From assembly GCF_033568475.1 (NCBI RefSeq), contig NC_133122.1, positions 141,181,402 to 141,245,401 on the forward strand: a DNA stretch of 64,000 bases, given 5' to 3'. Every line of letters begins with the position of its first letter. The stretch's first letter is position 1. The stretch comes from Henckelia pumila. Its lineage: Eukaryota; Streptophyta; Magnoliopsida; Lamiales; Gesneriaceae. The notes beneath the pieces are model-generated. The model was not told the DNA's origin and searched no databases. It saw only the letters and a list, made by a program, of their open reading frames with translations. This document shows, piece by piece, positions 1 through 56,649 of the stretch. The position numbers were made by a program, and so were the translations under genes.

Positions 1-24
1 CATTTGAAGTGCAGGGAGATTTAC

Positions 25-3000
25 CTTGTAGATTTGCACTCTGGAGGTTGGCCCCAGCTAAAAGAGCCCCATGAAGATTAGCACCCGTAAATTCACATCT
101 TTCCTAGGCAAGTTAAATCGATTAGAGACAACAAAGAAGAATATTTATGAACATGACCCAAATAACAATTCCAGCAGGAATCACATATTCTCATCCCAGA
201 AATTCATGTACCGAAAGCATTATGTCGGAATCAACTCCTAACAAAAAGTAATAATAAAGGAACACCCAGAAAGGATAAAACTCCTTAAATTGATTATCTT
301 ACTCTCGCAATGTTGCGTTGTGAAATATGGAAGCCTCAGCATCCACGTCCTGCCACAAAATTAAAACATTCTAGTATTATGAATATAACATCTGTCTTCA
401 TATGAGAAGGTTCCAAGAAGAAAAAAAGTCCAGATCTACGGTGCTAGCCATTAGAAAAGAAAACCAAGTACGATGCACACTGTAGAAACTAGTGGACTAA
501 ACTTCATAATGTTCAAAAGAACCAAACTTTATCCTATATTGGTTAAGAAACAACAAATATGCATAAAATTCCACAAGCATATGTCAACAAATATTTTATG
601 ACCAAGATAAAAAATAAAACAAAATCAAATCACGAGCTGTAAGCCTGCAAGAGATTACATAATTTCATTATTTTAGATAATTCTGCAGCCTTCAATCCAG
701 CACACTTCATCTTTTTACACGAGGGAGGGGACAAGAATGTGAGAAATTTATAGCATACATATGTAATTTATAAATCATAAAATAACTATTACCCACAAAA
801 GGCCTAACATTTCTTTTGAGAATCTATTGTATGCAGTTTAAAACACAACTTTCCAAGAGATTAAAACATATTACATACATGTCACAGGAGATGTGGCAGC
901 ACCAATCATCCATGAAGCAGAATCATTTACATTTTCCTCTCAAAAGAGATTATAATACACACCTTGAACTTCGCAGAATGAAGATTGGCTCGTGAGAAGA
1001 AGACATTCTTTAGACATGCATAACTGAAGTCCACAGAAGATAGGTCCTGCATTTTTAACAAAATTTGCAAGAAGCTGATCAGAGTAGAGGATAAGTTGAA
1101 TAGAAGCAGGAAAAAAACCTAAGAAATTCATGGCCATAAATCTTCTACAGTTGCGTAAAGAAGCATGATCAACTACACTGATAGTCAAATCTCAACTATC
1201 TTATAGCAAACAACAAGGTTCACAGATACAAGCCACAAAACAAGTGCTTTTAAGCAAAAAAAATTGATGTGGTTCTTACTAAGTTTATAATAAACTACAA
1301 TGGAAATGATGGATCATCTTATCAGACATAATGATGTGAGAGCAAATTCACATTATAAGCTAAACGGAACAAATGACTTACATTGAATACCTACCAATCA
1401 CCTGTTTCATAATCCATGAAAGAACATCAACTCAATTACCAGAAAATGTGGCCATGGTAACCACCAAAGCTAATCTTGTAATAATTTACAAGTGTTATAT
1501 TTTCCTTTTCTCAGTTGTGTGTTTTCTCTAACTTTGGGGCATTATAAATCACAACATCAAAACTCAGTTAAAGATTTCAATCCAGTGGAAACATGCGTCA
1601 GAGTCGATTAGTTAGATAAGTAGTACCAGTTTTGACAGATCAAGTCCAGAGAGATTGACTCCTCGAAATCTGACTTTCTTAGACTGAATGCATTTAATAA
1701 TATCAATGCGTGTCAGTTCAGTACCCATCTCCTCATCCACCTTCCTCTTGATCAACGATGTTTTAATTCCATCAATTAAGCCCTGGAAAGTACACGGTGT
1801 TTTCAGATATGCTCATTCACAAACAGGCATAGAGGCGAAGGAAGGGTAATCACCCCTCTAACTTGAAAAATTATTCTATATATATTTTTTCAAATCCAAG
1901 TTATTTTCCCCTCCGACTTTTTGGCTATCAAGTGTAGTACAAACAGTTTTCCACTGTAGCTTATGAATTTATGATACAATTTAACAAAAGAAAAAGAAAA
2001 CAATTCCATCCATGCATGGGCTGAAATTTAATAATTTTTTTTAACTATCATCGAGTTTTAAAGTAGAAGAAATATGATCATTTAATAAAAGAAAGGTTAC
2101 AAACAGAACATGAAAGAAACAAGCACATTGTTGCCGGTCACATGCAAGGCCCGCCGCATAATTTATATATCTCATGATTAAATAAAGAATTAGGAACTAT
2201 CTAAATCAACGTAAAATCAACAGAGAGTAAGGAATGACTCACGAGAAGCTGGAAATACTCAGCCTCTCTCAAAAGCTCAGAATATTGAGCATCTTTCAAA
2301 ATGGGAACTTCCCCGTCCCTCAACCAATTCAAAATATGCCGAAAATGTTCCCCATCTCTATCAACAAAAACGTAGCCCTGTGGCAACATCAGTAGATACC
2401 ATAAATTACATAAATTTCCAGAAAACCCATCAGGGTCAAAGTTCATATAATGCTGGGCTTTCACAAATGGAGAGAACAGTAAAACAACAAATACAATTTT
2501 GAATCAAAATCATGGCTTCATGTCCAGCATCTTTTATTTATCTTTCTGTCTAAGCAATGCTTCTCAATTGACAGGTTTGAGGATAACATTGAGAAACAAA
2601 ATAACGCTTGGGAATGCATCTCTTGCCATTGCTATACCGTATCATTATCCTGACAGATAGTGTGGCGACCACTGAACATTGCCGCAAGCATTGAATCAGG
2701 CTCACGCTGAGTCAAGGTATCGATTGTTGTGCAAAACTTTTTGCCTCCTAAATAACAGAAACACAAGGTTCATCGTATTAATGCAGGATGAATACTTTCC
2801 AAAAACTATGTTCAGAAAAGATTCAAAAAACAAAAATCCATTGATCTCCCTCATATTCAAGACCCACTAAAATATATCATCACACTATCACAAAACTAGT
2901 TCAGAACAACTATCTCTATACACGAAACTATCAATGTATTCGAGCAGTCAAAACTCAAACGAGGCAACAGAGAGTAAAATAATTACACTTTGGCTACGAA

Positions 3001-3184
3001 AACAGTGCACCTGACACAGCAATATAGTTTCCACAGGTGATCAATAGGCACTGGAATTTCATCGAATTACGTTTATAATATCACACAGACCACCAACAAA
3101 AACACATTACACATACACATACTGAGAATTACCGATATTGAGGCGGACGATGCGAGAAGAAGCTTGGGAGCAGAAGGTCATCAT
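25..3184 (-). CDS. FIP2: FIP2-like BTB/POZ and pentapeptide-repeat protein, copy A (3' end outside window)
   Basis: Six exons are legible on the minus strand: 3133-3184, 2638-2747, 2243-2377, 1627-1782, 963-1046 and 25-103. All have GT donors, AG acceptors and consistent phase. Exons 1-3 (about 99 residues) make a KCTD-type BTB domain, seen in RLNIGGKKF, DSMLAAMFSGRH and GYVFVDRDGEHFRHILNWLRD. Exon 4 gives a linker with EEMGTELTRIDIIKCIQSKK and then RGVNLSGLDLSKL. Exons 5 and 6 carry A(N/D)LxX pentapeptide repeats (SRANLHSAKF, TGANLHGALLAGANL). The Arabidopsis homologue FIP2 (At5g55000) was described as a partner of the formin AFH1; KCTD-type BTB domains often serve as CUL3 adaptors, but that role is inference here. 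The last exons lie left of the window. Two adjacent ATGs open exon 1; the upstream one is used. Confidence 0.88.
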
Positions 3185-4807
3185 CCAAATGTTGGGGTTT
3201 TTGAGCTGATAATTATGGATACTTCCGACTTTCTGAGAAACCTGGAATCTTGCGGTAGCGAGTCGGTATTAAACGACGTCGCACAGATGAAATGATGTTG
3301 GCAAACGAATGGGGTGAAAGAACGAAAGTTAATGGGAAATTGCATATTAGTCCTTATAAATAATATTAATTAGCATCTGCTAACCCATTTATTCTTTAAT
3401 AATTAAAGTCGGAAGTCTGGTCTACAACTTTTACTTAAGTTTATAGTAAACATATCATTTTGCCATTTGGATTCTCTATATTACCAAATTTTAATTTTAC
3501 TACTATAATTTTATTTTGGTAATTTTAATACTTTTAAAAGAATTATGATATTAATTCACGTTTTACACGTCAACACAACGCCAATATTGCATTAGTTTCA
3601 TAGTATTAACATCAAGTCTGAAAAAAAAGATTAAAATTATCGACCAAATCAAAATAACAAATTAAACATGAAATAAAAGAGACACTTAGGAAAAAATTAT
3701 AATTTTCTCTTATTTTATACCCTTTCACTCGTTTGACGTAATTTAATTTATAAACTTTATATTCTGAAATGAAATTATTTATGTTATCTGGTTAATTATG
3801 AATCTATGATTATTGATTTTTTTCTAGAAGGCTATGATTATTTATTTTGTCATACTCATTATTGAATTTTTTTTAACATTATTCATAATCAGAAGTTTTA
3901 CTTGTTAGAAAAAATTAATATATAAGTAGATGTGCAAAGAAATCAATGAAAATAAATTAAATTTTGGATTCCATTAACTGATTTAATTAAAAAAATTAAT
4001 CTATATTTGCATATTCGAATTACAGTTAGTAATTGATAGATGACTAAATAAAATATAATTAATAATGTATTGTCAAAAAATTAGAAGCATTCTAGAGTTA
4101 AAATTTGATCAACTCGATTCAGTACGAAAAATTGCAGAATAAATTCCGCATACAAATTAGCTATGAATATTTAGATAATAAAATAAGGAATTAGATCGTT
4201 TCTCCTTGGGTATCCGTATTTTACCAAAAAAACCCTATTAGTAACAGTTTTTTTCTCCCATGTAGCTTCTCTTGATTTTATGTTGTAAATTAATAAATAA
4301 GTTCATTAAAAAGCACATTATTATTTTTTACCCATAATTTTTTTTTTATATCGAAGAAGAAAACATAGTTTTCCATGCTTAACCTTTTGAGTAGTGTTTT
4401 AGAATGCTTCTAAGAAACACTGTCGAGCTTTTCCTTTACAAAATTCTCAAGTGTTTTAGAATGCTTATAAGACACATTATTGAGTTTTTCCTTTACAAAA
4501 TTTGAATTCACAAAAATTTCAAATTTTATGAAGAAAAATATCAAAAATCTTTCCAGAAGTATTCCAAATTTTCGACCACCACTAAATATTTGGGGGGAGA
4601 ACCCTCGTGCGTAAATGTTTCCCATGAAAAATCACTGAAAGCACAAAATATGTTTTTCTAAAAAATGAACTCTCGAGGGTAAAAAAATTAGATGAATCGT
4701 ATAATGTTTCACAAAGGAGATAGATTTCACAGAAGAATTAAAATTCAGAAGATATACTAAATCCGGAACTGATGTAAACTATAGCAAATAAGGGATCAGT
4801 CGTCCAC
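3185..4807. other. Intergenic DNA between RRP6L2 3' end and FIP2 5' end, copy A
   Basis: Strongly AT-rich, with no coding frame I can support. It should hold the FIP2 promoter next to 3184 and the RRP6L2 3' UTR near 4807. The only internal structure I see is a short tandem duplication at 4393-4506. The equivalent in copy B is 31543-33167. Confidence 0.6.
4393..4506. repeat. Two-unit 57-bp imperfect tandem repeat (copy A)
   Basis: The phrase AGTGTTTTAGAATGCTT starts at 4393 and again at 4450. Both units end in a TTTCCTTTACAAAATT motif. The spacing is 57 bp and the units differ at a few positions. It lies about 0.3 kb downstream of the RRP6L2 stop codon. Confidence 0.8.
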
Positions 4808-7800
4808 CTAACGGAAAGTAGCACTGCGATTTCCGGATGCCGGAAAAGCCAGCCGCCTTCTACCCTGTGGCAGAACATCTGTTTTCTCTTCACCGTTTGG
4901 TGATTCAACTGTCACAGAGCTCTTTTTCCCATCTCTTTTAGACCTATTCCTAGTATTATCTTTGCTTTCTTCGGTTCGCATCCTGCGAATGTCCCCAAAT
5001 TTTACCTGCTCTCGAGCAGCTGCATAATTGAACGGTTCAAAGTCCTTGGAGGGTTGGAATTTTTCCACCATTTCTGAACTCTTAGGCTGCTCTTGTGATG
5101 CAAAGAACTTCTGGAAGCTTGAGGATAGGTCGGACAGTGACATGGGCTCATTCTTGATCATCAATCTCTGATGCAGAACCTGCTATGCCGTTTGCTGGCT
5201 GGTTCAAGTCATGGTTGGATGCAGAATTGGAGTTCCCTTTCGCGGATTCTTCCGTATCTGAATCAACACCGAGATTTATAATGTCTTCAGTGGTTGAAAC
5301 AGTAGCTGGTGCTGGGACTTCTTCCATGTTAGCTGGAACTTCAGTTATCGAGGGATATTCCTGAACAGATGATTGAAATTGTTCATCTCTGCCTGAAAAT
5401 ATGTGGAATGGGAGACTCACTGTTGATTTTATTTGCTCCAGCTTAGTGTCTCGTTGTTCCTAAAGCCAAGTAACTAACTTTAATCTTGAGAAGAAGATGA
5501 AAGAAGCGAAGTAACCGAACATAGTGAATCAGGAACTGTCAAACTTCACAATGAAACTCACTATTTTATCAGGATTATGCTTCCGCTTTGCTGAATTGCC
5601 AAACAGTGCCCCAAAAGCTCGGCTTGGCTTCTTCAGAATCGGAGCAGTTGCTGCAGCCTAAATTAAAGCAAGTCAATTTGCCAAAGTAGACGTGTTTTTT
5701 CAGCAGTCAAGGGACAATAATGCTCTGACAGCAATTTTGTGCCAAGAATGAACTGAAACATGATCATAGACTTCTTCGAATCAATAGCAACAGGGGATTT
5801 TATTGGAGGAATGTAGGGTGGTCTGGTTAGCATGTTCTGATTAGTTAAACGTTTATACAAGAATATCATACACAGGAACCAGAAGGATATGCAACGACAA
5901 AAAACTGAAAAGTAGCTTACGGCTGGTGACATTTTCATATCTGTTGATGTAGCTTCGGGATGCCCAGATTCATGTGATGTTTCTGTAGGAACATAAGCAG
6001 CACGACCATCTGTCTCACTTCTTTCATTCCCATTTCTCTCGTAGGGGTAGTGAGCAGATTTTAGCTCGGTTTTACTGATTGTAGCATTAGAACTTTCAAT
6101 GACATGAGACTTGTTCACGTATTGAACCGAAGATATTGAGGTGGCATCTTCGCTGTCATTACGTAAACAGCTATGTTTTATTTCAACTTCCTCGCTAGTT
6201 TTTATTACTTCAGGAGCTGTTGGAGGCAACAATTTCAGAATCGTCTGCAGCCAAAGAATTTTCTTCATTTACCTGCAACAATGGATCTCGTTATCAAATG
6301 AAGCTTTACATAACAAATTAATGGAAAGCAATTGGATATGGATGAGAGAGTTGAGACAGAAACCTCCAAAAGAGAACTTTAACGAGCCTATCTGACACAA
6401 TACCACATATCAAGCACGTTCGAGAAAATTAACATATAAGGGAACCTCTTATCTAGTGACCACAATAAAACCAATCCACTAAAACTTTACAAGATACAAG
6501 CATATCTATATTTGAGAATGAGAGATGCTTGCATAAAAAATCTGTTCCAAGTTGACGTTGATTTCAATTTGCAGAACAAACTTGAAAGCAACTTTTAAGT
6601 TAAATAATAATCAAAAAATGTTTTCTTGTAGTGTTTATGCTGTTCAATATGGTAGATTGTTATTCCTCATGCTCACAAATTTTATCATGTCCTCCAGACT
6701 CAACATGTTGCTCGGTTCTTTCAAATTAAATGTCATAATATTTTGTGTCATGGATGCAAACAAAAGACGATAAGCGGGCACCAGTAACTCCAAAAAATAG
6801 TCTCCTCTGAGTTGATAAAACTTTATTTTTCATTGTGATAAGATACTGAAAGTAATGCTCTCTATAAAACTTTAAAATGAAAGGCACATACACAAATAAT
6901 AAAACAGAGTCTATGACAAAACGTAGATAATTTTCCCCTTTCGACCAGAAATTAGCAAGTTCACAGAGACGAGTTAGCCAGCTGGGCATAGAAAACGAAT
7001 GAGAAGATAGGATAATTCATAAAAAAACATACCATTTCCAATCGCCTCGCTTTAAGTTGTTCAACGGCTTCCTCAAATGCAGAAGCATTTCGGATGGCAT
7101 GTTTTATTATGCTAACAACAGAACCAATATTTCGTTCAATATACGGGTGCTTGGATCTCAAGACATGACGTAATTTGCTGGCAGTGACAGGCATCTGTTT
7201 AGCTTTTCTCAACAAGCATAAAGGAAGAATGAATAGGGTGAGGAGGCAGAGAAAACGGTATGGAACAAAGAAAACCTAGAAACACTGGATGCAGTTAAAT
7301 TTGGAAAAACTAGTAAGTACCAAGTTCGAGAAGATTCCTATTTGGTAAAACATATCCAGTGCTCTCATCTTCAGCACGAGCAACAACATCCCTCCATTCA
7401 TAGAGTCCCTAAATGTCGTTCAAGAGTTACTCAAAAAATATAGATTGCAAGTGTATGCAGGGCCCAGGGGTATAACCAGAAACTTTTAATCCGTTTAGGC
7501 GAAAAAATATACTACAAAATATACATGTAAAATGGAGAAAGAAACAATTTTAATATGTGTCCTTAACAATTTAAATCATAAAGTTCGAATCCATCCTAAA
7601 AAGTTCAAATTCAAGTAATGAATAATTTTCTAAAATATTTAAATCAGGAATTTTAGAATAATTCTTAGAATAACAGTTAAAATATGATATATTTTTATTA
7701 CGTTGATATATGATATTTTTAGACACAAACATAGTGTCCATATAGTGTTTAATTAGATGTAACACACTTTTTTAACGTATTCAAACCACAGCACAAGCTT

Positions 7801-10521
7801 GAAACTCTCGACAAAAGTTCCAATCAAACCTGCTGGGCAACAGCCCAGTTTTGCCTTCGTATATGTCTGCCTCTGTAGTATGCGAAAATGACAAAAAAAA
7901 ATGCAGGAAAAGAGATTGAAAACGCTAGAATCATAGAAAATGTTTGCTTATTGAAATTGTCAATAGCTTGCATAGTGACTGAAGCACTCTAAACGAATGG
8001 GTAATAACTAACCAAACGCAAAAAACACCACCAAAAACACAGATCACGTGAAAACTGTATACAGGGAAAGACAGGAATGAGTAAATTAAAAATGTATGCA
8101 GAAAAAAGACAGGCATGGATAAATTTACTTACAGAAACAACAGCTAGCTGCCTAGTGTTGAGCTCAGCATCCTGTAACCTGCATCATCATATTTTTAACC
8201 AAAAAATCAGAAAAGCAGACGAGTAGAAACGAACACAGGCCAAGAATGCAATATGTTTGCTCTATGGACAACAAGGTCCATGATTAAAGATTGCCACAAA
8301 CTGACAAATGGAGCAATACCCATAAATGTGAAGGTACGAGTCATCAGTCAGAAGCTCCTTTTCATAGAGTTGACTGCATATATCATAACTCCGTTTATAG
8401 ACCTGCCAAAACACCACATAATCGTCAGTTGCAACAAATGTTTAGTTATGCATTAAATTCTATAGCCCATTTATTTGGTAAGCATACCTTCCGCAGGTAT
8501 ACAAGTAAAAGAACAAAGTTAATTTTTTTATTTTTATTAAACAATATCTTAACATTATAACCAATACATACATACATGCATATATACGTACATACATATA
8601 TATACGTATGTATATTAAAGAATTGAAAAATAGCGTTATTATATTATAATATAAAAATGATAGAAATTTTTTTTTTAGTACTTTTACATGTATATAGTTT
8701 TGTTACCCTGCACACTATCGTCAGCTAAGCTGGCACCAACTTGCAGCGTTTGTTTTTTTCTTCTGAAAAATTTTAAGATGTTCAGGTGAACATCTTTGAA
8801 CAATTAAATTCTTGAATTTGATTCATTTATTTTAAAATAAATGTAAATGATGTTATGTTCGAAAAGATTGAGCTCGGGTCAGCCAGGATCACCTTCCGTA
8901 GCTAATTTCAAGTATGTAGTAAAAAAATGGAAATTGAGCCAATATTGCTCCCCAACACACAGGAAACTTGAATATTAGGACACTTGCATTATATGCCACC
9001 ACTAATCACATTAAACTCTCAAGCTGATTGGATGTTTAGTTGATAGGATATCCTTAACAGCAGAGAGGAGTTATGGTGAATCTAAGGGGAAGAGAGTCAG
9101 ACTTTAAATTAAACATGTCACAATAAAACAGTGTAAATATCCAAATAACACGGCTGTTCCCTGCTGAGGTTAACAACTCTTCATTTTGGTACAGACTGGA
9201 CTATTTTCTCCAGTCTGATCAAACCAATCCTCGCACTTCTGACTATCATTTTACGAAAGAACTTCAATGTTTTATTTCAAAAGTTTTCTCTGGTCAGCAT
9301 TTAAAAATTACAGTTTTGAAATCAGGAAGAATTTTGGATCTGTATTTTAGAAATTCACCTGTAATTAGGAAGCATTTTAAAGTTTCACCTTTTAGTGTTC
9401 TAGAATCAAAGAACCAATTTCTGATTCAATACTTGAATCCAAATTCCAACGAAGAATGAATTTAAAGTGCTTGCCTCAGTTAGAGGAGGATCAGAATTTT
9501 CAGATTCAGCAGTTGACATTAGCAACTTTTGCCTCAGCACATCATATATGTACAGCAAATAATGTGTGTCTTCTCTGGCATATCTGTGAAACAGAAATCA
9601 TACACTGACATGAAGATGACCGCACAGTGACAACAAGAACCTTATAATCTTAGCAGATGAAATTATAAATTCTCTCATCTAAAGTCTTGTGATTCATGGT
9701 TGTCTAACTTTAATGCTTCATGTTACTACACAAACAATTCACATCCTTCGCCATCACCTCCAATTATCTCATCTACTAAACTTGATTCACCAGCTAACTA
9801 CCCAGGATTAAGAAAAATAACATATGCATCTGTACATAAAGGTGTACTTATGAGCAAACAGGAAGTGTCACTGTAAAAGCCTCAATACTAAATCATCTAA
9901 TCATACAAGTGTCAATTCAGCACTCTCATGTTCATTTAAAGCAGTGGGTACTGGTCGTGTAACTCAAATTTCTGAGATAGGAGACAACCATAATTTCAGT
10001 CCTCCACATGCATAATTAAGACCACCTATCAAGTACATGAGCAAAACAATGTCCCTATATTGCATTAAATAACAGAGAGAATACTATGAACAGAAAGTCC
10101 GTAAGAGGAGGCTTCTTACGTACAAATTCACATGCTACATGATAATGATAACTGCAGAAAAAATATAACAGAACACGAGTTTAAGAAGAAACCTACGCAA
10201 TCATCTCCTGGGGAAGTGGGCGTAATCTCCAATCTGCATTTTGGTATCTGCAGAAAGTAGCTGGTTAAACCAGTAATCCGCTTCTAACTATACTCTTTCC
10301 TTCTATTCTTCCATTTCTTTATAACTTTTCCTAGGAGTCCCACTATGTATAGTGGTCAGTTCTTCCTATCTATATATATAGAAATTTTCAGCTGCCCAAT
10401 GATGCCCAACTCGTCCTCGACCACTAAAACCCGGTACCGTATTTTAGTTATGCGAAAAATAATTAAAAAAAAAACCACTGGACGAGGTGGGGAAATATTG
10501 TTAAGCAGCTGAAAAGTCCTC

Positions 10522-10561
<40 letters not shown>

Positions 10562-13500
10562 CATTATTATTATTTCAACATGGGGTGGGGGTTTAGCCGT
10601 TTCGGTCACTCCCACAATGGAGAAAGGATTACACCACTCCAACTACAAGGACTGTAGCTTGTAGTTGGTGCTTTTACATAAGAGGTGGCGACATCGCGTC
10701 AGTTAAATTATATGGATCACCATATTACTGGATATTTTATTGCAGGGAAAGATCATACTCTTTGTTTGCTGCAACTCCACAAAAATGATTCAGCAGGTAC
10801 TCAAGGCTGTTACGTTCCATTTTCAATACTCTCGAGGCCTGTCAACAAAGAACAAACATACTCAATCCCAAAACTAGTTAAAGAAATATGGTAACTTCAT
10901 CCATTGTGTTTAAATGCATGATTAACAAAGCATCTATTTTAAATGATATATTTTTCCAATTTTATACATTTTTGCAATGATACCAAGACCAAGTGCAGAG
11001 AAAATGGAGAAAATTCATGTACAGAAACACGCCCAAAATGCCAATGTGAGTACATATAGAAAACTTCAAATTGTTCAATCCAGCAAAATGAATTGTCATG
11101 GGCCACGGTGTTAAGAAATAGGACATGTAGAAGCTACGACATAATTTGGGATTCAGGCGTGTTTAAATGATTAGCAAAGCAAAAAATTCATTTATGCAAC
11201 ATTATCTAAAGAAATGCATTTAATTCGAAGACCTGTCCTGTGTCAAACATATTGCAGACATATATGCTGAAGTCCCGTTGAAGCCATAGAATGTCACGAT
11301 CTGCTCCATGCATTACCTAATCAACCCAAGAATTACACCGATTTAGAGAAGCCGACGTGAAAACAATTATCCACAACAATCAGAAAAGTCACCTTTCTCT
11401 TAGTTGGGTCTTTGAATAGAGGTCTGAGATATGGTCCAATGTGAACCCGGAGTTTCAGTGTGTCGATCACAAAATCCTCAGTTCTTGTGGAAATTTGCAT
11501 CAAACACGTCAAGCCTTGAAAAGACCTGTAATGGTTATGCTCCAAATCAACCTACAAGATAGTAGCACAGTAAAAAAACAAAAACACAAAAAACTCAGAA
11601 ATAATCTTATGAAACTCAAGTATCAAACTCTCCAAGTGAAAATAGAAGAGTATACACTTTTTTTTGGGTTCCACTGGATATCTCATAATTTGTATCAACC
11701 AACGTAATAATGCCTACACAAGCCTTTTAGAAATTTATAGCAACTATCACCAGATTAAGAAAATACATACCATGGTATGTTTTTACACGACTGAAAGGGG
11801 AAAAAAGTAAAAAAACTGACGATGACCTAAGCTGCTTTAATATTAGAAAATTATTTTTCATAAACTAAGTTTAAATATTCTGATAGAACCAAGTTAATAT
11901 CCAAAACATGGACTATTTATTTTTTGAGGTTTTTGAAGAACCTGTCTCACTCACAAGGCAAATAAAAGAGCTTGAGCTCAAACCACAAACCACAAACCCC
12001 TTGCTATGAGTTACACCATGCTTATTACAGGAGAAGTGAAAAACATATTAACAAATAACAATGCATATATATATGCAGGCAGAGAATATGGAGAGCTCTA
12101 GAAAATGTCAATAGCTAGATGTCGATAGATGTAGTTCAAGTGATGTGTTCAGTTCTGAAATGAGTAGTGACACATTAGGCAGGTGTCTGAAGGAAACTGA
12201 AGTCCCTCTTACAATAAAAATCACATGATCATAGGAAAATCCATCAACAAAGATTTCTTCTAACTAGCTCTCATCTGAAGCTCTTGAAAATTCTACTTAA
12301 TATAAGATAAGTTGATATACACTAATTTGGGACCTACCACCATGAATAAAAAAGTGATAGATAAACATTACGAAACTAAAATACTTCATACATCATGACT
12401 TTAAGAACATGAAGCATGGACATCTGAGCAAGTGCTGTCTCATGCATTTGAGAACATAGCAGACGGTCCAATAAGAACAAAAATTGTCCAGTTCAAACCT
12501 TTCAAGCCTAGATGTTTCTCCTTTTGGAGCATGTCTGTAACTCAAAGGTGAGACATATTCATGATAGTGCTTGAAACATATTAAAACATTTGGGGAAGCT
12601 CTGGCATTTAATGAGTTTAGCAGGAGAAGTGATTCCATACATCGGTGAAAACAACTTTAACACAAAAATCGGAAAGCAGCTCTCAATAGGTAAGTGGTAA
12701 CCATGAAGAAAGGCAACATAGAATATCAACAACAACAAAGCCTCTATACCCTGTACTATCATATGAACCAATAATTGACGTAGATACAGTCAAATCAATA
12801 TATCAATGAACAGATACATATATATATATATATGTATATAGTGTGTGTGTGTGTCTCATCAATAAACAGGACATAATTTACCGCAAACTCCTCCACGTTA
12901 GACAATTTTAAAGCCAGCCGTCTCAACTCATTCACATCTTCAACAAGTTTGAATGGGGTAAGTTCTATTGGAGGAGGTTTAATAGGCTCCACAGTGCTGT
13001 CATTTTTATCAACGAAGTCAAGGACAGAGAGCTTTTCCTGTTAATGTATGAGAAAATAAGTTAGCAGTTAGCACCATTAAATATTTTCATATTTTAGCTT
13101 ATTAGATGTACAATTAATAACATAATGAGCCATGAGAAACATCTAATCAAACAATCACCGAGAAGCTAAAGTCAATATGTGCATTTGGTGATCATTTCGT
13201 ACCCAAGTGTGAGCAGAGAGATAGAGATATGTTGTGGACATAATGATTTCAGAGGCTCATTTTCTCTGCCGAAACTTTTTTAAGAACATACAATATATTC
13301 AGAAAAGCATTCCTGGTCCCTTCAAACATTGTCATAAGCTAAACACATTCAATCTTAGACAAACTCTTTAACTTTAATTAAACAAAATGAGGGTTGTCAC
13401 TTTGGCAAGGCAGAATAATATGATGGGGAACTGTTTGAAATGAAACTGCAAAGAAAAAAGGCAAAAGCAAACAAGAACTTACAATAGTCAACAGATAAAG

Positions 13501-32752: not shown

Positions 32753-32866
32753 AGTGTTTTAGAATGCTTCTAAGAAACACTGTCGAGCTTTTCCTTCACA
32801 AAATTCTCAAGTGTTTTAGAATGCTTATAAGACACATTATTGAGTTTTTCCTTTACAAAATTTGAA
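32753..32866. repeat. Two-unit 57-bp imperfect tandem repeat (copy B)
   Basis: Counterpart of 4393-4506, with the same two-unit layout. Confidence 0.8.
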
Positions 32867-33167
32867 TTCACAAAAATTTCAAATTTTATGAAGAAAAATA
32901 TCAAAAATGCTTTCCAGAAGTATTCCAAATTTTCGACCACCACTAAATATTTGGGGGGAGAACCCTCGTGCGTAAATGTTTCCCATGAAAAATCACTGAA
33001 AGCACAAAATATGTTTTTCTAAAAAATGAACTCTCGAGGGTAAAAAAATTAGATGAATCATATAATGTTTCACAAAGGAGATAGATTTCACAGAAGAATT
33101 AAAATTCAGAAGATATACTAAATCCGAACTGATGTAAACTATAGCAAATAAGGGATCAGTCGTCCAC

Positions 33168-41163: not shown

Positions 41164-41194
<31 letters not shown>

Positions 41195-42739: not shown

Positions 42740-45700
42740 GATTTGTTTCTTTTATCCCCTCGAAACAACACACACTGAAATGGGAAGTTACAGAGAGGGA
42801 CTAGGGTTTATGGGGTTTTTATCGTAACGCCCATTTTCAGTTCAGAGGTTTCAGGTACATAACAGAATGCAGACTGTACAACGCATGCATTTCTTGTTTT
42901 TTTTTTTTAATCATTTCTTCAACGGCGTGACAAGTGTACGGTCCCGATGGTGTCTCTGAATATTTGTAGAAAAAATCATAAAAAAATCCACGCAATTATA
43001 TAATTAGTTTTAAGTTATGCTTTTAATTAACTAATTAAGCATGTTATTATGATTAAACATACGAAACAAAATCAAGATCACAACAAAGCTTATAATTAAT
43101 TATTTTTCAAAAGGGAACAAATATTTCAGGCCCCAAAGCTAATTAAGATTTATATGAAAAATCAAAAAGGCAAATTGTTAATTTTGATCGTATATATATT
43201 GATATGTGATATTTTTGGTCTAGCATATTTTGGTGAATCAATTATAGTCTTGTAACTATATCCTAACAATAAATTTAAATTAGTTCTTCTTTTTAAACTC
43301 GTGTAATTAATTGACTAATTTCATTATTATTTTTTGATAATTGTATTGTCAAGCATGCGTGTATGTTACAAAAGGTTTTTTTTAAAAACCATGAAGTTTA
43401 GCATAATATTAGTTATTTAATTACATAATTTAGACGAAGACTAAATCTGATAATTGAAAGGTAATTACAAGACTATAATTAATTCAATAAAAGACACCGA
43501 AATTAAAAAAAAATTATTAAACACCAATATATATGACTAAAGTTGATATTTTCCAACATCAAATGTTAAGAACAAGATTGAAGCCAAATCAAGATTAAAG
43601 TCATGAATTTTAATTATCAGAATATATTAATTGATTTATAATACATAAAATCATTTTAATTGTTTCTTTATTATATAAAAAGGAACAAAAAAATTAATGT
43701 AAAATCAATAAGAGACCATGATTCATTATCTGTTCAATGCTGATCTCAGATAAATAAAAAGAGATGTTCTTTAGAGAAGATCTCACGAATATTTATTTGT
43801 TTTATCTGTTATACCGGTTAACTTTCCATATATATAAAGTTATACATAAAATTTTTAGCATAAAAAAAATACTTCTTAATAGATCTAAACAATTAAAAGA
43901 TATATCTCACAAAATTAACACGTGAAACGATTTCATAAGAATTTTTGTGAAATAAAAATATATAACTACAGAGTACATACTACGTAAGATTAATGTATGA
44001 TATTAATTTACATGTACTTTTTCATGTCTCAATTTCTCCATGGGTGAAATTGAGATCAATTCTCCATAATTTTGTTATTGAAATTTCTTTATAAGTCTCC
44101 ACATGCGAGCATTGAAACTGGGAAATAGGGGGAATATTGTACTGTACATGGGGCCGTACATAATTTTGGTATATTTGATTGACATGGTCCATGTTTAAAA
44201 TGGCATTAGGCTTAGATAAAAGCTGATAAAGTTCCATCCTTTATTCTTTATTGTTTTTGTTTCGAACACGAGAATTTTATAATATGTTTAAAATAGGCTG
44301 AAATATATTGAGGGCTGGGTGTGCCATAAAGTTTAGATAATTTACATTTATGATATATGAGTTATTTATATATGTTGAAAATATATTTCTCTCGTTCTAT
44401 GAATAAAAGACATGATGTGTTTTCAACTGCCATAATAAAATCATGCTATTTCATTAGAGTTTAGAGAAAATAATCGAAGAAAGAGCTTTAGTATTAGATA
44501 TATAATAATAATTGACATTATGCCCAAAAACACCATTTTCATCCATCGAATTCATACCCTACAATCCCACAATGTACAACTAGCTAGTCAACTTCTCGAT
44601 AATTCAATCATGAATTTCTATAATGGAGTAGGAAAAAACCCTACAAGAAATGAGGGGGAGGAATTGAGTGAGCAATACAAAAATAAAAAATAAAAAAAAT
44701 GAAGATTATGATGTCAAATTCTATAACATAATTGATATCAAGCATCTTATATTAGCCATCACATAATTCACATTTAAATATGTGTTGTTTTAACAATATT
44801 TTCTCTGAACAAGGAGTAGAAACAATGAGGGAACCGATAAAAGGGATAATAGTAAATTTCATTTTCAAAAAATGTATTAAATCATCATCTGTTATTTATG
44901 TCTCGCTTCTATTATCTCAAATCCCTATAACTATTTTATGTGCTTTTTATATTTGTTGGATCAAGTCATCAAACACTCTCTAATCACCGAAAATTGTAAA
45001 AGTTATTTTAGTTTTTGTGAATAAAATGTAAATATGATTTAGAATTCCACAGAAGGAAAAAAGTGCAAAAGTGCCAAAGGCAAAATGACCAAGCAAATCA
45101 AGGCCACAATATGCCAAGGCAACCATATTTAAAGCCACCAAACCAAAAGCCAAAGCCCCAAATGCTTGTGACACACTGAAAGCGAAAGCTCCCTGTCCAA
45201 GACAAACGACCATTAATTTCCCATTTTTTCTTGGAAAAATTATTCAGTTTATATAAAGAAAATTTACAAGAAGAATACAAATCTTGAAATCTAACAAATT
45301 TCTCTCATGTCCAAATCCCACCATGTAAAATAAGAAGATGTTGTGCATGGAGCTGATAATGAATGAATGCTCCCCTACCCTTGAGGAAGAATAAAGGGTC
45401 AAGAATCTTTCTTTCTTTCTTTCTTTTATGATTTTTGCTTTTCCTTTTGTTGTTCAGTGCAACCAACATTGAGACTCCATTGAAGCTTCAAAAGTATTAA
45501 ATATCATTATGAGCAAATGTGGGGTATAAAATTTGGAGAAAGACAAACATACCAAGACATATAATGCAGATTTTTTTTTTTTTTTGCTTAATGGTGGTTG
45601 AAATGTAGTTTACTCAGAATTTGTCACTTCAATTGTCTTGATCTCTGCGTGGTTAGAAGCCTCCAAACTTATAATATGAGAGAACTTGGAAGATTTTTGC

Positions 45701-46206
45701 TTTGAAATGAAGAAAATTGGGGCATTGGGATATTTGTTCAAGTCTTGTGAAAACTTATTTTGAAGTTTATGGTTGCTTCCATTGAAGGTCAGTAGTTGGT
45801 GAGGTGAGATATCACCTGATTTTTTGAAGCTATCTTGTTGGGTATTTTTGTTGGTTGCTTCATTTGTGGGTAGTAAATTAGTAATCCACTGATTGTCACC
45901 CTGGGGACAAGGAATTTCTAAATTTTGAATTTATTTTTATTTTTCCAAGACGTGTACATTTATCCAGAATCTGATCCAAGAAAATTGTTTCTGTGGCCAA
46001 GAAAGGTATCAGTCTGAATCCCAAAATGAAGAAATCATGAGAAACTTGTAAATATTTTTGGTGTCATAGCATTATCCTGTAAAGCATTTGCCCTATTTCT
46101 CATGTTAATAATTCATATGCTTGTTCGCCTTCATGACAAAAGCAGAGCAATTCTGGACTGAGAATCTTCAAAACTTTAGGTGGAAACGCAGTCGAATCGA
46201 CTGTTG
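42740..46206. other. Intergenic DNA between RRP6L2 and the receptor kinase, copy B
   Basis: Divergent spacer of 3.5 kb, AT-rich, with no repeat family I can name. The only candidate frame is the one at 44980-45213. The RRP6L2 promoter should lie just right of 42739 and the kinase promoter just left of 46207. Confidence 0.55.
44980..45213 (-). CDS. Unrecognised short hydrophobic open frame
   Basis: An ATG-started frame of 77 codons. Its first 50 residues are rich in Ala, Gly, Leu and Phe (for example SVSQAFGALAFGLVALNMVA and GLDLLGHFAFGTFALF), which would make two membrane segments. The plus-strand DNA is a loose repeat of GCCAAAG/CCAAA words, so the hydrophobicity may simply reflect low complexity. 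I know no matching family. It lies in the promoter-side spacer of the kinase, on the opposite strand. Copy A has the same DNA with indels. A chance frame is the more likely explanation. Confidence 0.2.
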   Translation of the reverse strand: MVVCLGQGAFAFSVSQAFGALAFGLVALNMVALAYCGLDLLGHFAFGTFALFSFCGILNHIYILFTKTKITFTIFGD

Positions 46207-49200
46207 ATGGCGCGTAATTCAGAATGGAGAAACTTAGTCCAAAATGCCTTCCCAGTTCTGTTTCTCCTGATGATTTCAATCACATACACGGAGCAGCTTG
46301 AATCATCCCAAATCCGAGCCCTTCTGAAAGTTCGACAACTTCTTGGTTTCCCACCCTTTTTGAAAAGCTGGAATAAGGCCACAGATTTCTGTAACAGTGA
46401 ACCATCGTCGAATCTTACCATTGTTTGTTATGAAGAGAACATAACTCAGCTGCATATCGTGGGAGAAACAGGGGCTCCTCGATTACCTGAGAATTTCTCT
46501 ATCGATTCTTTTGTTAGCACACTTGCTAGGATTCCAGGCTTGAAAGTCCTAAGATTGGTTTCTCTTGGCTTATGGGGACCATTTCCCGGTGAATTCACTA
46601 ATTTATCGTCCTTGGAATTACTGAACTTAACTTCAAATTTCTTCCAAGGCAGCATATCCCCAAGTGTATCATCAATGACACGGCTTCAAAGTTTAATACT
46701 CGATAGCAATAACCTCACTGGTCGGATGCCAGATGGGATAGGTTCGCTTTCATCTTTGGTTGTTTTGAGCGTGAGGAGCAATTCTTTAAATGGAACTTTG
46801 CCACATTCATTGGGGAACTTGGGGGACCTCAGAGTTCTTGCATTGTCAAATAACAAATTTTCTGGTGAAGTACCGGATCTTAGTGGGTTGACAAATCTTC
46901 AGGGGCTTGACTTGGAAAACAATGCTGTCGGGCCTCGATTTCCTGAGGTTTGCAACAATATCGAGAGCATTGTGCTGAGGAACAACAAGTTCACTTTTGG
47001 GATTCCAGAGAAAGTCCGATCTTATTATCAGCTCAAGATCTTGATCATTTCCTCCAACAGATTCGTCGGACCATTTCCAGTATCTTTGCTATCTCTGCCA
47101 CATCTCACCTATCTTGATATAGCACAGAACAAGTTCACAGGCATGCTTGTTGAAAACCTACCTTGCAGTGACGAACTTAGTTTTGTGAACTTTACAGCTA
47201 ATCTGTTTACTGGAAAATTGCCCAGATGCTTCTTGTCAGGATCAAGAAAAAGGGTTGTGTTGTACGCCGAAAATTGTTTGTCAACAGGAGAACAAACTCA
47301 GAACCCGATTTCTTTATGTAAGAATGAGGCTTTAGCTGTTGGAATTTTACCTCATCACCGAAAGAGAAAGCAAGCTTCCAAAGTTATTCTTGCTTTAGGC
47401 ATATCTGGTGGAGTTATTGGGGCAGCCATTTTAGCAGGTGCTACCTTTCTTGTCGCAAGAAATGTTCTTGCCAAGAGCGAAAAGGAAAAATCTCCTCCTA
47501 GACTTATATCAGAAAATGTATCAGCTGTATACACCTCAAAGTTGCTCAAAGATGCAAGTGAGATTTCTCTCCTTTGTACATCTTTTTAGGTGGAAAGTTT
47601 AATTGATTTAATGAATTTTATATGTTTATTCCTCATAGGATACATAACTCAAGCCATGAAAGTAGGAGCGCTTGGCCTCCCTTCCTACCGGACGTTTTCA
47701 CTGGAAGAGCTTGAGGAGGGAACTAAAAATTTTGATACATCGACTTCCATGGGAGAAGGATCTCACGGTCAGGTACTTGCTGGCTGCTGCTTTTGGTTTC
47801 CGAATAAAATCACGTTTATGCAAAGCATACATAAACCAAATCTAAAAAATTCTCCAGGAGAGTTGTAAAAAATGTGCAATGAAAGAAATTAACATCTTTT
47901 TCAATTCAAAATCTAAAATAATGCTTGGCATCATTGGTGATGAGCTGCCTCTACATGGACTCAGATGTACAGAGGTCGACTAAGGGATGGCTCCAATGTG
48001 GCAATTCGATGCCTGAAATTGAAGAAAAGCCACAGCATGCTGTACTTAATGCATCATATTGAAATGATCTCAAAGTTAAGACATCACCATCTGGTTAGTG
48101 CTCTTGGGCACTGCTTTGAGTATTACTTGGATGATTCAACGGTGAGCAGGGTAATTCTTGTCTTTGAATATGTGCCAAACGGGACTCTAAGAAGCTGGAT
48201 ATCAGGTAAACTAAAAGACGTAATTCTTGTGAATTCATTTGTGTTTTTATGTTAAAAACTGCCACAGCTCATTGTCATTTCTGGCAGACGAGCGAGTTAG
48301 CCGAAAGCTTACATGGGTTCAACGAATAGCGGCTGCTACAGGGGTAGCAAAGGGCATCCAGTTCCTTCACACAGGAATTATGCCTGGTGTCTTTTCCAAT
48401 AATCTGAAAATAACAGATGTTTTACTGGATCAGAACCTAGCTGCAAAAATCAGCAGCTACAACCTGCCATTGCTAGCAGAAAACACGGAAAAAGTATAAA
48501 TAAATAGTTTTCCAAATTTGTGTCTTCACATCATCTTTGCACAACCTGACAGTCTAAAATTGCTCGATTTCACAGGATCGTCTCCAAAATTTCCTTGGAT
48601 CCAAGGAGGCCAAGAATGCAAGGTTTGTTATTATGATTCATGAGTACATGTGGATGTATAACATTCAACAAAAAGTTATTAAGAAAATGCTTCTTCAGGA
48701 AAACAGTCTCTTCCGTCTTCAATATATTTATTGCCTATTATTAATTGATTCTCAGGGCAAAGCATCAAAACAAGTTGGATATTTATGACTTTGGAGTGAT
48801 GCTACTAGAAATCATCTCAGGGAAGCCCATATATTCCAGAAATGAAGTGGAGTTTCTAAAAGATCAGGTACTCACTGAACTAAACTACATTTTTTCAGTT
48901 TTCATCCCAAAGCACCAAATGATGCACACAATTCATTTATTAATTACTGATACTTTTTTTTAACGTTAAGCAGTTCCAAGCCAGCATAGTAGCGGATGAT
49001 ACATCAAGAAACAGCATCGTTGATCCAGAGATTAGAAACTTATGCTCGGGTGAATCATTGAAAACAATGATGGAGCTATGCTGTAGATGTTTGATAAAGG
49101 ATCCAGCTGATAGACCTTCCATCGAAGATGTACTATGGAATTTGCAATTTGCTTCTCAGGTTCAGGATGCATGGAGGGGTGATTCCCAAAGCAGTGAGAG

Positions 49201-49252
49201 CTCTCCAACTTCGCCTCTGAAATCTGCACGATTAAAGCGCAGCATCAAATAA
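46207..49252 (+). CDS. Probable inactive LRR receptor-like protein kinase (At3g03770 type)
   Basis: Seven exons join in frame: 46207-47557, 47639-47772, 47965-48205, 48288-48493, 48576-48622, 48756-48867 and 48974-49252, giving 789 aa, close to the family norm of about 800. The order is: signal peptide (FPVLFLLMISITYTEQ), N-terminal LRR cap, about ten LRRs (LTGRMPDGIGSLSSLVVL, LSNNKFSGEVPDLSGLTNL), a juxtamembrane Cys pair, and one membrane helix near residues 385-410 (ALGISGGVIGAAILAGATFL). The cytoplasmic kinase fold starts in exon 2. The glycine loop is MGEGSHGQMYRG. The VAIK lysine is Arg (VAIRCLKLKK), the HRD loop reads PGVFSNNLK, and DFG is replaced by SSYNLP, so catalysis is not expected. 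The C-terminal lobe is normal (KLDIYDFGVMLLEIISGKP, RCLIKDPADRPSIEDVLWNL). Start chosen: first ATG that runs into the signal peptide. It is tail to tail with SUVR3. Confidence 0.92.
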
Positions 49253-49851
49253 TAGATGTAGCAGGTGCTTCTTCTTTTCAGTTAAAAGCCTTGACCAACC
49301 AGAATTGTAATCTCTACTTTCTGTGCCAGATATTTGAGGTTATAAACTGGTATGCCAAGTTATGGTGGTATCATTTTACTTTTTCATGTTAGTGGATATG
49401 TTGATTGACAAAAAGATATGATTTTGTTGAATCTCTCTTTTCGTAGAGATTGGCACTTCCCATAAGAAAACACATCAAAACAAAATTTTCATGGTCATAA
49501 CTCGTAATGCATCAAAAAAATTATTAGCGAGAGTTGACGTACGGGCTGGATGATGTTCCCTAGTTCCATCTTCTAAGACTAAATTCTTGCAGTTCTCTTT
49601 GTTGGTTTCCAAAGAGCATTTTCATCTGGAAACACGTGCTTAGGATCAACATCGATGCATCTCACTCTTGCAATGGTGGAAATCTTGTCACGTTGATCGT
49701 GTCTCCTTGCTTCCAAAGAGAATCAGGAAAATGAAGAGCTCTTTCTTTTAGTTAATGAAGTTAGGCATGCAACAGTCAAAGAAAGTTAAACTAACTTACA
49801 AATGTATTATTGAACACAACAAAAGATTATTCTGTGTCGATTTGTAGATGT
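49253..49851. other. Tail-to-tail spacer between kinase and SUVR3, copy B
   Basis: About 600 bp separate the two stop codons. The 3' UTRs from opposite strands probably share this stretch; no gene is visible. Confidence 0.6.
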
Positions 49852-50905
49852 TCAAGTGTGTTCTGATGGAAGGAATCCAGTACAAGAAGAAGTGTCACAA
49901 AAACATCGTTGACCATTTGGCTCAAGACTAGAACTTCCATAACTAAATGAAAGCTCTTCATTCTCCTGAATTTCTCTAGAAGCAAAGAAGCAAACGCGAG
50001 ACAACAGAGACCCCGAACTGCGCACAATCACCGGGTCAAGATTTCCACCGTCGCACGAGTGATTAATGAAACGTGCAACATTCCCGATTCTTGTTGCATC
50101 AATGTTGATCCTAATGCTTACATTCCCAGATGGAAGATGCTCCTTGACAACCAACAGAGCCGGGGTCAAGCATCCATTCGATGCAAGTCCATCATATTTC
50201 TGCTGCCGTTGTCTAGATTCTTTGGTAGAGATAAGTTCACCTTCAAGTTGAAGAACACTAAAATCAACATCTTCTAAACATGGCCTATAAATTAAGTAAA
50301 AAATTTAAATTACCTGCATATTCACACACAAATTTCCCCTCAGGAATCAACTCAGCAGCACGCAATCCCCAACCTTTTCGATCATCTTTCACAATCTTCA
50401 ATTCAACGGAAATCCCTCCCTGAGTCGCCCTGTTCCCACATCCAAAGTCACACATACAACTTGGGCCACACTCCATGCATGGACAGTTATCACAAATCCC
50501 ACCCTTACCCTCACATCCGCAGTCAATTCCACCCTCGACCCGGAAAAGAAACGGGTCGGGACGGGTCTGCCCCTGACACATCTGCGATTCATTGTCGGAG
50601 CCCCACGGCTGACGTAAGTCGGGCTTCATCTGGAGAACCTGCGTTGGGGTGTAGAGGAAGTAAGGGTATGGTTGCGAATCGCCCACAATGGGGTTGAGGA
50701 AAGGGATTGGAAAATTCTCGAAGGTTCTGGAAGCATCCGAGGTTCTCCTCGCCGTCACTAGCTTCGCGATTTGGTACAAGGGATTACAGGTGGACGAAAT
50801 TGAAGCTAGTTCGTTGGGAGTAAGGTACGGGAGGAACACGGCGGCGCACTGGAAAAATGCTTCGCCGGAGCTGTGAGCTCTCTTGTTGCTGTGTTGTTCC
50901 TCCAT
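49852..50905 (-). CDS. SUVR3: SUVR3, SET-domain histone-lysine N-methyltransferase family protein
   Basis: Two exons, 50314-50905 and 49852-50240, join at CEYAG/GEL with canonical splice sites and give 326 aa, close to Arabidopsis SUVR3 (At3g03750). The N-terminal third has a short F-box-like helix stretch (FLPYLTPNELASISSTCN). Pre-SET cysteines follow (IDCGCEGKGGICDNCPCMEC, CMCDFGCGNR). The SET domain has KGWGLRAAELIPEGKFVCEY, the AdoMet-binding and catalytic NVARFINHSCDGGNL, and ELSFSYG with the catalytic tyrosine. The post-SET CFCDTSSCTGFLP closes the protein. All motifs needed for lysine methylation are present; the histone target cannot be read from sequence. Gene order beside the At3g03770-type kinase matches the Arabidopsis interval. 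Confidence 0.93.
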
Positions 50906-52601
50906 GGAATGGAATTGGGCAAATCAAATCATTTTAATTAATATATTTTTACAATTACATATTATCACTCGATAGAATTGTCACCTTGCAAACACTAAGG
51001 TGGGTTGCAGCCATCCACTCCAAAAAAAAATAAAAATAAAAACCTCTTGTAATTAATTAAAATTATCAGTTCGTAAATTTTTATATTGATTTCACACTTA
51101 TACATTTTATACAAAATAATTAATATAGAAAATTCACAACTTTCATTTAAAATATATATATCACCATAAATTTATAATGTATAACTTTTTTTTTTTAATT
51201 TTCTTAAGCCTGCTTTTGAATTGATGGAGAAAATCTCAACTTAAATCAACTTAAATTATTTGGTAGAGGGAGCAAATTCCTTGTGTTCAAATCCAAATTA
51301 ACGGCTCTATCCCTACGCAACTTGTCCAACCTTTTGTAAAGTTAAATTTGATATGACTCAAGGTCTATGACTTCTGATTTTTAAAAAAATTACAAAACAA
51401 TATCCCGTCTCAATTATATGGACTTGTTTTTTTAAACCATAAAATTAAGAAACATCATTTGGAAAAAAAATTTAGTGATTATACGTTTCCAAGACTCGGA
51501 GGTATATATATTTAAAACAAACCAAAAAAAAAAAAAAACATGGTCTACATAAATTTATAATCGAGACGGAAGTCGTAAATTTTAGAAATTTAAACGTCAT
51601 AAAAATTTAGAAGTGGTACATGTAAACCCGCTATAAGATTAAAATAATCAACCAAAAAACAATGCATAATGCAATTTGAATGACATAAATTAGGTGAACA
51701 ATAGTTTTGACATCTTTTATTTCACTTCAAGTTCACATATCTAAGTTTGCCTAATAAATTGAAATTGCTCTTGGATCGATGAATTTTCCTAGAAACTGAA
51801 CGATTAAGACTTTTATACGACCAACATCAATAATGGTTTCACAAATCATCATCTAAAACCACAAGGAAATGGATGAAGGATCACATTTAGGTGTTAATGG
51901 AGTCTCCCAATAGACAAATCAAACAAACATGATCATTAGACTTTCACAGTTTCACTTGGCAAATTGTATAAAATCACAAGGTACCGTACGTATACACATA
52001 GATGTAGGCATATCGACAAGGATGGAACCAAGTTATATACAGCCCAAAAAACCCGATACGCGTAAAGCAAGATAAAGAAAATGGGAACAAATAAATCACA
52101 AGATGAACACGAAACTCTCGTGAGATGGTTTCTCGGGTTCATTTTGTAAGACAAATATCCTATTTAGGTCATATGTATACTTTTTGCGTCAAAAGTATTA
52201 CCTTTTATTTGTAAATATGGGTAGATTGACATGTCTTGCTCACAAGAGACATACTCGAAGAGAAAACTGAATGAAATTTATGTAGCCTTGTAGTTTGAAA
52301 GAATCAAAATCATTTCCAAAAGAAATTTTAGGATATCTTCATTGCCACCCTCGAGAGGTGTGTTCTAAATTAATGTGATCTATGGTTTAACTTACTGATT
52401 CAAATACCTAGTCAGCCACAGGCCTTGCTATTCGCATGAAAAAACAACAAATTCAAAATAGAATAAGTAAAACACGGGAAAATCCAAGGTGTTCGCTTTT
52501 ACACGAAAGTCACAACACATCTAATGGAGGCATCACACAAAAGAAAAGGATGGTTTGTTAATTTGGTTCAGGGCTAAATTGTCAGGTAAGTTGGTTCATA
52601 C

Positions 52602-52679
52602 CATGGGCTATGGAGTGAGTTGCAGCTCCACTTGTGGTCTGGAGACCGAAGCCTGTGCTCAATCCACAAGTAGTTGCAA
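52602..52679 (-). other. Weak exon-like frame, unrecognised
   Basis: On the minus strand a 78-nt stretch is bounded by AG on the left and by GTATGA on the right. It reads VATTCGLSTGFGLQTTSGAA and then THSIAHG. The composition looks protein-like but I cannot name a family, and no neighbouring exon connects convincingly. The identical stretch is present in copy A near 24725-24800. It could be part of a non-coding transcript or chance. Confidence 0.15.
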
Positions 52680-53178
52680 CTTCGATACAGTTTATAGAAC
52701 CAAACAATAAAAAAAAGATGTGGTAATTCCGCAAATAAAATATAACATTTAGTTAGACCATCTAACAACTTTTGCTAGAGTATGAAATGCACTATAGTCA
52801 ATAAGCCACATAAGCTAAAATCATTCCAACATTTTGAAAAACATACATTTGAGAGATGTAACTTAATATAGGAAACTAAGTCCAGCAAAAACAGATAGAT
52901 CTGAACATCTGGTCTGATTTTTAAAATTCTCTGCAAATTATCCATGTCTTTCATAATAAGGCCATGGGAGATGCAGAAAACAAAGACAACGTCTTTGTGT
53001 ATGCTACCATCAATCATAAATACCAGATACATATATTTGTGGACCTCACCACCTGCATTCGCTTGATCTCATATATGTCTATGTTATCAGTACAATAGTT
53101 TATCTTAAAGAGTATAGTACTGAATGTCCCTACAAAGTCTAGCAGATCTTATCTTACAGGTCTACCATAAGACACATC

Positions 53179-53319
53179 CTAAATTATTCCATAAACCCCA
53201 AAAGCAGATATCCCAACAAAAGTTTTCATGTTTATCTTCAATTCTGCTGGACACTCTTCACTAGTTTCACGCATAAACACATTCAAAAGCCCCTCTGCAA
53301 CCTCAACTATTTCTCCGCA
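53179..53319 (-). other. Weak open frame of about 46 codons, unrecognised
   Basis: A minus-strand frame reads GEIVEVAEGLLNVFMRETSE and continues ECPAELKINMKTFVGISAFG before a stop. The mixed charged/hydrophobic composition resembles a real exon more than the surrounding AT-rich DNA does. A possible acceptor (GGTTGCAG) lies inside it. I recognise no family and cannot build a gene around it. Copy A is truncated by the gap just inside this frame. Confidence 0.15.
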
Positions 53320-56580: not shown

Positions 56581-56609
56581 AACACAAACACAAACACAAA
56601 CACAAACAT
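56581..56609. repeat. (CACAAA)n microsatellite
   Basis: About five consecutive hexamer units of ACACAA/CACAAA. Confidence 0.85.
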
Positions 56610-56649
56610 CTATAATTTGTTTTTCAATACGTAAGTTTTTGCTAAAGCT

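What the first reader, a model, noticed from the sequence alone, without database searches (positions are those of the whole stretch)
1..53241. Same 25-kb locus present twice around a 100-N gap: likely missed contig overlap or unpurged haplotigs
Copy A (1-25359) and copy B (28329-53241) match gene for gene and base for base through introns and spacers. Copy A ends exactly at a 100-N gap. Copy B is preceded by 2.9 kb that would extend copy A to the left if the two contigs overlap, and continues on the right where copy A stops. This end-to-start geometry is expected from an unmerged overlap. Any gene count or paralogue claim for FIP2, RRP6L2, the LRR kinase or SUVR3 from this assembly would be inflated.
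Basis: partly seen in the sequence, partly recalled or inferred. Interest (0 to 1): 0.8.

Follow-up and report, generated by a model that had tools for sequence, protein, structure and literature searches.

The report
Assembly artefact: one locus assembled twice
A 25-kb stretch of what looks like a plant genome appears twice around a gap, most likely because two overlapping pieces of the assembly were never merged, so the doubled genes are probably an error of the draft sequence, not biology.

Summary
The repeat is real in the letters: 1-25359 and 28329-53241 align in a single match at 97.33% identity (107 mismatches, 374 indels), and copy A stops at the first N of the 100-N gap. The differences point to an artefact. 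They pile up in two tracts, one in each contig on the side facing the gap. A 16251-23846 has 301 insertions in A to 5 in B, and there the long LRR-kinase and SET-domain frames are open in B. B 28329-28794 has 22 insertions in B to 2 in A, and there the pentapeptide-repeat exon reads cleanly in A. This insertion-heavy pattern resembles PacBio error, not evolution. Elsewhere identity is 99.0-99.9%; 28 of the 35 remaining mismatches lie in 8.0-13.5 kb and look like SNPs between haplotypes. So I read it as a false duplication: an unmerged contig overlap, partly between alleles. A true recent tandem duplication is not excluded, because no reads and no genome are held. Low interest; a warning for gene counts.

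The parts
1..25359 (+). Copy A: right end of contig 1, abutting the gap; redundant with 28329-53241
   Evidence: single BLAST match, 97.33% identity, whole of A covered
25360..25459 (.). 100-N gap, the only N run in the window
25460..28328 (+). Left end of contig 2, present once in the window; carries what reads as the broken-frame remainder of the BTB/pentapeptide gene (minus strand)
   Evidence: no match to copy A or to 53242-64000; three-frame reading by eye shows pentapeptide-like pieces switching frame
28329..53241 (+). Copy B
16251..23846 (+). Insertion-error tract in copy A: 92.9% identity to B (44595-51726), 301 insertions in A to 5 in B, 65 mismatches
   Evidence: longer open frames in B
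28329..28794 (+). Insertion-error tract in copy B (A 1-435): 91.0% identity, 22 insertions in B to 2 in A, 7 mismatches; may extend left towards the contig start
23..103 (-). Pentapeptide-repeat exon that reads cleanly in copy A; in copy B (28350-28439) its pieces are spread over frames
   Evidence: Pfam Pentapeptide E 1.5e-7 in A; frame 0 of B gives no Pfam match, the other two frames hold stops and were not scanned
8000..13510 (+). Patch with SNP-like differences from B (36362-41866): 28 mismatches, 17 of them transitions, 6- and 7-bp tandem-duplication indels, AT-repeat steps; probably a different haplotype
23847..25359 (+). Clean last 1.5 kb of contig 1: no mismatches, two 1-bp indels against B
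46180..47586 (+). LRR receptor-kinase ectodomain ORF, 469 aa, open in B and fragmented in A (17928-19455)
49855..50923 (-).
   Evidence: Pfam SET E 5.8e-13 in 49855-50304; 50288-50923 gave no Pfam match
33171..42751 (-). RRP6-like exonuclease gene in B; A equivalent about 4811-14395
   Evidence: Pfam PMC2NT E 2.7e-5 at 41756-42751; DNA_pol_A_exo1 E 0.004, below cutoff, at 37768-37956; ORFs 33171-33818, 33937-34647 and 35323-35652 gave no Pfam match and are placed in this gene by position only
29287..30861 (-).
   Evidence: Pfam BTB_2 E 1e-9, Pentapeptide E 5.9e-6

Best explanation
False duplication. Contig 1 (ending at 25359) and contig 2 (starting at 25460) cover the same chromosomal segment and overlap by about 25 kb within the window, and by about 28 kb if contig 1 continues left of position 1 as predicted. 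The facing contig ends contain poorly corrected long-read sequence with many inserted bases, and part of the overlap (8.0-13.5 kb) seems to come from different haplotypes. The ends were then too unlike for the assembler to merge. A scaffolder placed them side by side in the same orientation with a 100-N gap. Shown: the overlap, the two facing tracts, which copy keeps the reading frames in each, the SNP-like patch. Inferred: thin coverage, failed merging, scaffolding, a diploid source.
For: (1) Homology runs to the last base before the gap, and no duplication breakpoint is visible in the window. (2) A 16251-23846 has 301 insertions in A to 5 in B and 65 mismatches; extra A bases make up 469 of 7,601 columns (6.2%), mismatches 0.9%. 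Published raw PacBio rates are about 8% insertions and 1-2% substitutions (PMC7671305, passages). (3) Frames: B holds a 469-aa ORF where the longest A ORF of the tract is 170 aa. Over 17 ORFs picked as open in B, 182 frame-breaking indels have the extra bases in A and 6 in B. B 46894-47208 scores LRR_8 E 3e-11; the A piece over the same stretch, 18692-19027, scores nothing. Indels do not spare coding ORFs: 190 of 306, 163 expected. (4) The mirror image at the left end of contig 2: 22 insertions in B to 2 in A, with the pentapeptide exon clean in A. (5) Transitions are 18 of 65 mismatches in the large tract, 0 of 7 in the small one, 17 of 28 in 8000-13510. (6) A gap between the pair on one scaffold is a mark of false duplication in Ko et al. 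2022 (PMC9516828, passages).
Against: No reads, no depth, no whole genome, so nothing here measures copy number. The last 1.5 kb of contig 1 is clean, so its error tract is not strictly terminal. Raw PacBio reads also carry about 3% deletions; the tract shows only 5 such events, so it is not simply a raw read. The 8.0-13.5 kb differences could be paralogue divergence. The 17 ORFs were chosen by eye because they are open in B, which biases point (3); of them 8 had a Pfam match (two below cutoff), 4 were scanned without a match and 5 were not scanned. In one of them (29958-30170) the indels are mixed, 1 in A to 2 in B. For one more A piece without a match, 19203-19712, the part of its B equivalent that was scanned has none either, nor has that of 22685-23002, so these two say nothing. 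In the small tract one B frame stays open through the exon, though without a pentapeptide match.
Confidence: 0.93

Rival explanations
1. A true, very recent tandem duplication of at least 28 kb (four genes); the assembler broke inside it and the gap hides the junction.
For: Same orientation and adjacency; assemblers do break in long near-identical repeats (general knowledge); the SNP-like patch at 8.0-13.5 kb would fit paralogues with patchy gene conversion.
Against: No breakpoint or junction is seen in the window. The coding damage is mostly inserted bases with few substitutions, which looks like sequencing error. Mismatches outside the tracts are strongly clustered rather than spread: 28 of 35 in 5.5 kb, reached by 0 of 20,000 uniform placements.
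Confidence: 0.05
2. Pure homotype artefact: one haplotype assembled twice, all differences being errors. This is a variant inside the best explanation, so its confidence is part of the 0.93.
For: 5 mismatches in 7.6 kb (436-7999) and 0 in the last 1.5 kb; the two tracts look like errors.
Against: 28 mismatches in 8000-13510, 17 of them transitions, plus clean 6- and 7-bp tandem-duplication indels, look like alleles.
Confidence: 0.25
3. Copy A is a decaying duplicate (pseudogene block), its insertions being real mutations.
For: Frames in A are broken and indels do not spare coding ORFs.
Against: 301 insertions to 5 deletions and 306 indels to 65 mismatches are the reverse of neutral decay, in which substitutions outnumber indels and deletions outnumber insertions (general knowledge). 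The tract ends sharply at 23846, followed by about 980 identical bases, and a mirror tract is in B.
Confidence: 0.01

Closest known systems
Heterotype and homotype false duplications (Ko et al. 2022, PMC9516828; passages read)
   Same: Near-identical pair on one scaffold with a gap between; haplotype differences and sequencing errors named as causes; inflated gene counts.
   Different: Here both causes seem to act in one overlap; the depth, read-pair and k-mer criteria could not be applied.
Haplotypic duplication as targeted by purge_dups (PMC7203741; search listing with start of abstract only)
   Same: Two copies of a region left in a primary assembly, breaking contiguity.
   Different: The program was not run here.

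Membership tests
False duplication in a genome assembly (Ko et al. 2022) | Near-identical duplicated pair | tested here: met
   97.33% over 25.4 kb; 99.0-99.9% outside the two error tracts
False duplication in a genome assembly (Ko et al. 2022) | Scaffold gap between the pair | tested here: met
   100 N at 25360-25459
False duplication in a genome assembly (Ko et al. 2022) | Half or lower read depth on the copies | not testable with these tools
   no reads; no genome held
False duplication in a genome assembly (Ko et al. 2022) | Discordant read pairs across the junction | not testable with these tools
   no reads
Homotype subtype | Sequencing errors distinguish the copies, no haplotype-specific k-mers | tested here: inconclusive
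   error-like differences dominate two tracts, but an SNP-like patch exists; no k-mers from reads
Heterotype subtype | Heterozygous k-mers in both copies | tested here: inconclusive
   28 clustered mismatches, 17 transitions, and natural-looking indels at 8.0-13.5 kb; read k-mers not available
True tandem duplication | Visible junction or breakpoint between the units | tested here: inconclusive
   none visible in the window, but it could lie in the gap or left of position 1

The most novel reading that the evidence does not exclude
A very young tandem duplication of a block of at least 28 kb with four genes (BTB/pentapeptide, RRP6-like, LRR kinase, SET-domain), possibly polymorphic, with patchy gene conversion, its junction hidden in the gap and its copy A obscured by sequencing errors.
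Probability: 0.05. Interest if true: 0.25.

Novelty: not a real feature. Interest (0 to 1): 0.1.

Why it matters
Gene counts, paralogue claims and copy-number calls for these four genes from this assembly would be inflated, and the copy-A kinase and SET-domain models could be called pseudogenes or split genes. The case also gives a read-free test: when the copies differ mainly by insertions, and each contig is the damaged one on its own side of the gap, an unmerged overlap is the likely cause.

Tried and rejected
Searching the window's own genome, with the left end of contig 2 as query: not possible. A neutral-decay reading of copy A: rejected on the insertion bias and the mirror tract. A pure single-haplotype overlap: weakened by the 8.0-13.5 kb patch. 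tRNA scan: 0 genes; Rfam at gathering thresholds: 0 matches. Papers: a search asking for five terms on PacBio error types, CLR among them, found 0 papers; another wording found 7 (6 listed), of which I read passages of PMC7671305. A search on undetected contig overlaps listed 10 of 1,544 papers; I read passages of PMC9861903 on Hi-C misjoins and took nothing from it. The species was not identified; I ran no search for it, as no plant genome collection is on hand. One of three alignment settings was rejected by BLAST as unsupported; the two that ran gave the same counts.

Full report
Observation. The window has one N run, 25360-25459, and one large self-match: 1-25359 to 28329-53241, same strand, 97.33% identity over 25422 columns, 107 mismatches and 374 gaps. 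It covers all of copy A up to the last base before the gap. The two gap-cost settings that ran gave the same counts; a third was not supported. The flanking pieces 25460-28328 and 53242-64000 match neither each other nor copy A.

Gene content. ORFs of copy B give Pfam BTB_2 (E 1e-9) and Pentapeptide (5.9e-6) at 29.3-30.9 kb minus, PMC2NT (2.7e-5) at 41.8-42.8 kb minus with a sub-threshold exonuclease match at 37.8-38.0 kb, LRR_8 (3.7e-20) and protein kinase (3e-8) at 46.2-48.3 kb plus, and SET (5.8e-13) at 49.9-50.3 kb minus. Of the ten ORFs, four gave no match (33171-33818, 33937-34647, 35323-35652, 50288-50923). Right of the repeat lie an OST3/OST6-family ORF (2.6e-9) and a cation-ATPase gene (3.2e-10). 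That the source is a plant is inferred from this gene set and the plant receptor kinases among the solved relatives of the LRR ORF.

Where the copies differ. By zone of A: 1-435, 91.0% identity; 436-7999, 99.6%; 8000-13510, 99.0%; 13511-16250, 99.5%; 16251-23846, 92.9%; 23847-25359, 99.9%. In 16251-23846 there are 301 insertion events in A, 5 in B and 65 mismatches. In 1-435 there are 2 in A, 22 in B and 7 mismatches. In 436-13510 the two directions balance, 15 to 15. The single extra bases of the large tract equal a neighbour in 162 of 225 cases, against 44% expected for random insertion. Copy A also has extra bases in a thinner run before the tract, 12 to 0 bases in 13511-16250.

Which copy is wrong. 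In the large tract B holds a 469-aa LRR ORF where the longest A ORF of at least 100 aa is 170 aa. Over 17 ORFs picked by eye as open in B, 182 frame-breaking indels have the extra bases in A and 6 in B; three neighbouring pairs overlap by 17-20 bp, so a few may count twice. The choice favours B; 8 of the 17 had a Pfam match (two below cutoff), 4 were scanned without one and 5 were not scanned. In ORF 29958-30170 the indels are mixed, 1 in A to 2 in B. Of four A pieces of the tract given to Pfam, three had no match and one a kinase match of 20 bits, against 33.7 bits for its B equivalent. Of the three without a match, one is informative: the B equivalent of 18692-19027 scores LRR_8 at 3e-11. 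For the other two, the B pieces scanned have no match either. In the small tract it is the reverse: A 23-103 reads a 27-aa pentapeptide stretch (E 1.5e-7), while the same exon in B (28350-28439) has seven extra-base events. Its exon-start frame stays open but has no Pfam match, and the other two frames hold stops, with pentapeptide-like bits scattered over them. Left of this, in 25460-28328, what reads by eye as the remaining pentapeptide exons switches frame within exons, suggesting that the tract runs on towards the start of contig 2; there is no second copy to compare.

Interpretation. So each contig is insertion-rich on its side of the gap, and in each tract the other contig reads better. 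Evolution hardly does this: in the large tract indels outnumber mismatches 306 to 65, insertions outnumber deletions about 60 to 1, and coding ORFs are not spared (190 of 306 indels, 163 expected). Long-read error does. Published PacBio raw rates are about 8% insertions, 3% deletions and 1-2% substitutions, with elevated transversions (PMC7671305, passages). The tract has 6.2% extra bases and 0.9% mismatches but hardly any deletions, so a partly corrected consensus is likelier than a raw read. Transitions are 18 of 65 mismatches in the large tract and 0 of 7 in the small one, against 17 of 28 in 8000-13510 and 4 of 5 in 436-7999. A Fisher test with slightly different limits (436-15700 against the rest: 21 of 34 and 18 of 73) gives p 0.0004.

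Haplotypes. Of the 35 mismatches outside the two tracts, 28 lie in 8000-13510 (0 of 20,000 uniform placements reach that), together with 6- and 7-bp tandem-duplication indels and AT-repeat steps. That is what two alleles look like. The other three zones have 5, 2 and 0. I read the overlap as part same-haplotype, part different-haplotype; patchy gene conversion between true paralogues would look alike.

Verdict. The best reading is a false duplication of the kind described by Ko et al. 2022 (PMC9516828, passages), who list a gap between the pair among its marks and name both haplotype divergence and sequencing error as causes. Their depth and read-pair criteria could not be applied. A real tandem duplication keeps about 5%: no breakpoint is visible, but the gap and the window's left edge could hide both. 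Unexplained: why the last 1.5 kb of contig 1 is clean while the 7.6 kb before it is not.

Noticed in passing
25728-25863 and 25943-26073: Imperfect tandem pair of about 137 bp, 81% identical, in the 2.9 kb before copy B.
   Followed up: no
48233-48496: The kinase exon reads HTGIMPGVFSNNLKITDVLLDQ where an HRD catalytic loop would be expected (motif recalled), with a Pfam kinase score of 14.6, below cutoff: possibly an inactive receptor kinase.
   Followed up: no
4393-4502 and 32753-32862: 57-bp tandem repeat, about two units, present in both copies of the locus.
   Followed up: no
59042-59085 and 59149-59192: 44-bp direct repeat, 95% identical, in the right part that occurs once in the window.
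   Followed up: no
23847-25359: The last 1.5 kb of contig 1 is free of mismatches although the 7.6 kb before it is error-rich; the boundary is sharp.
   Followed up: partly
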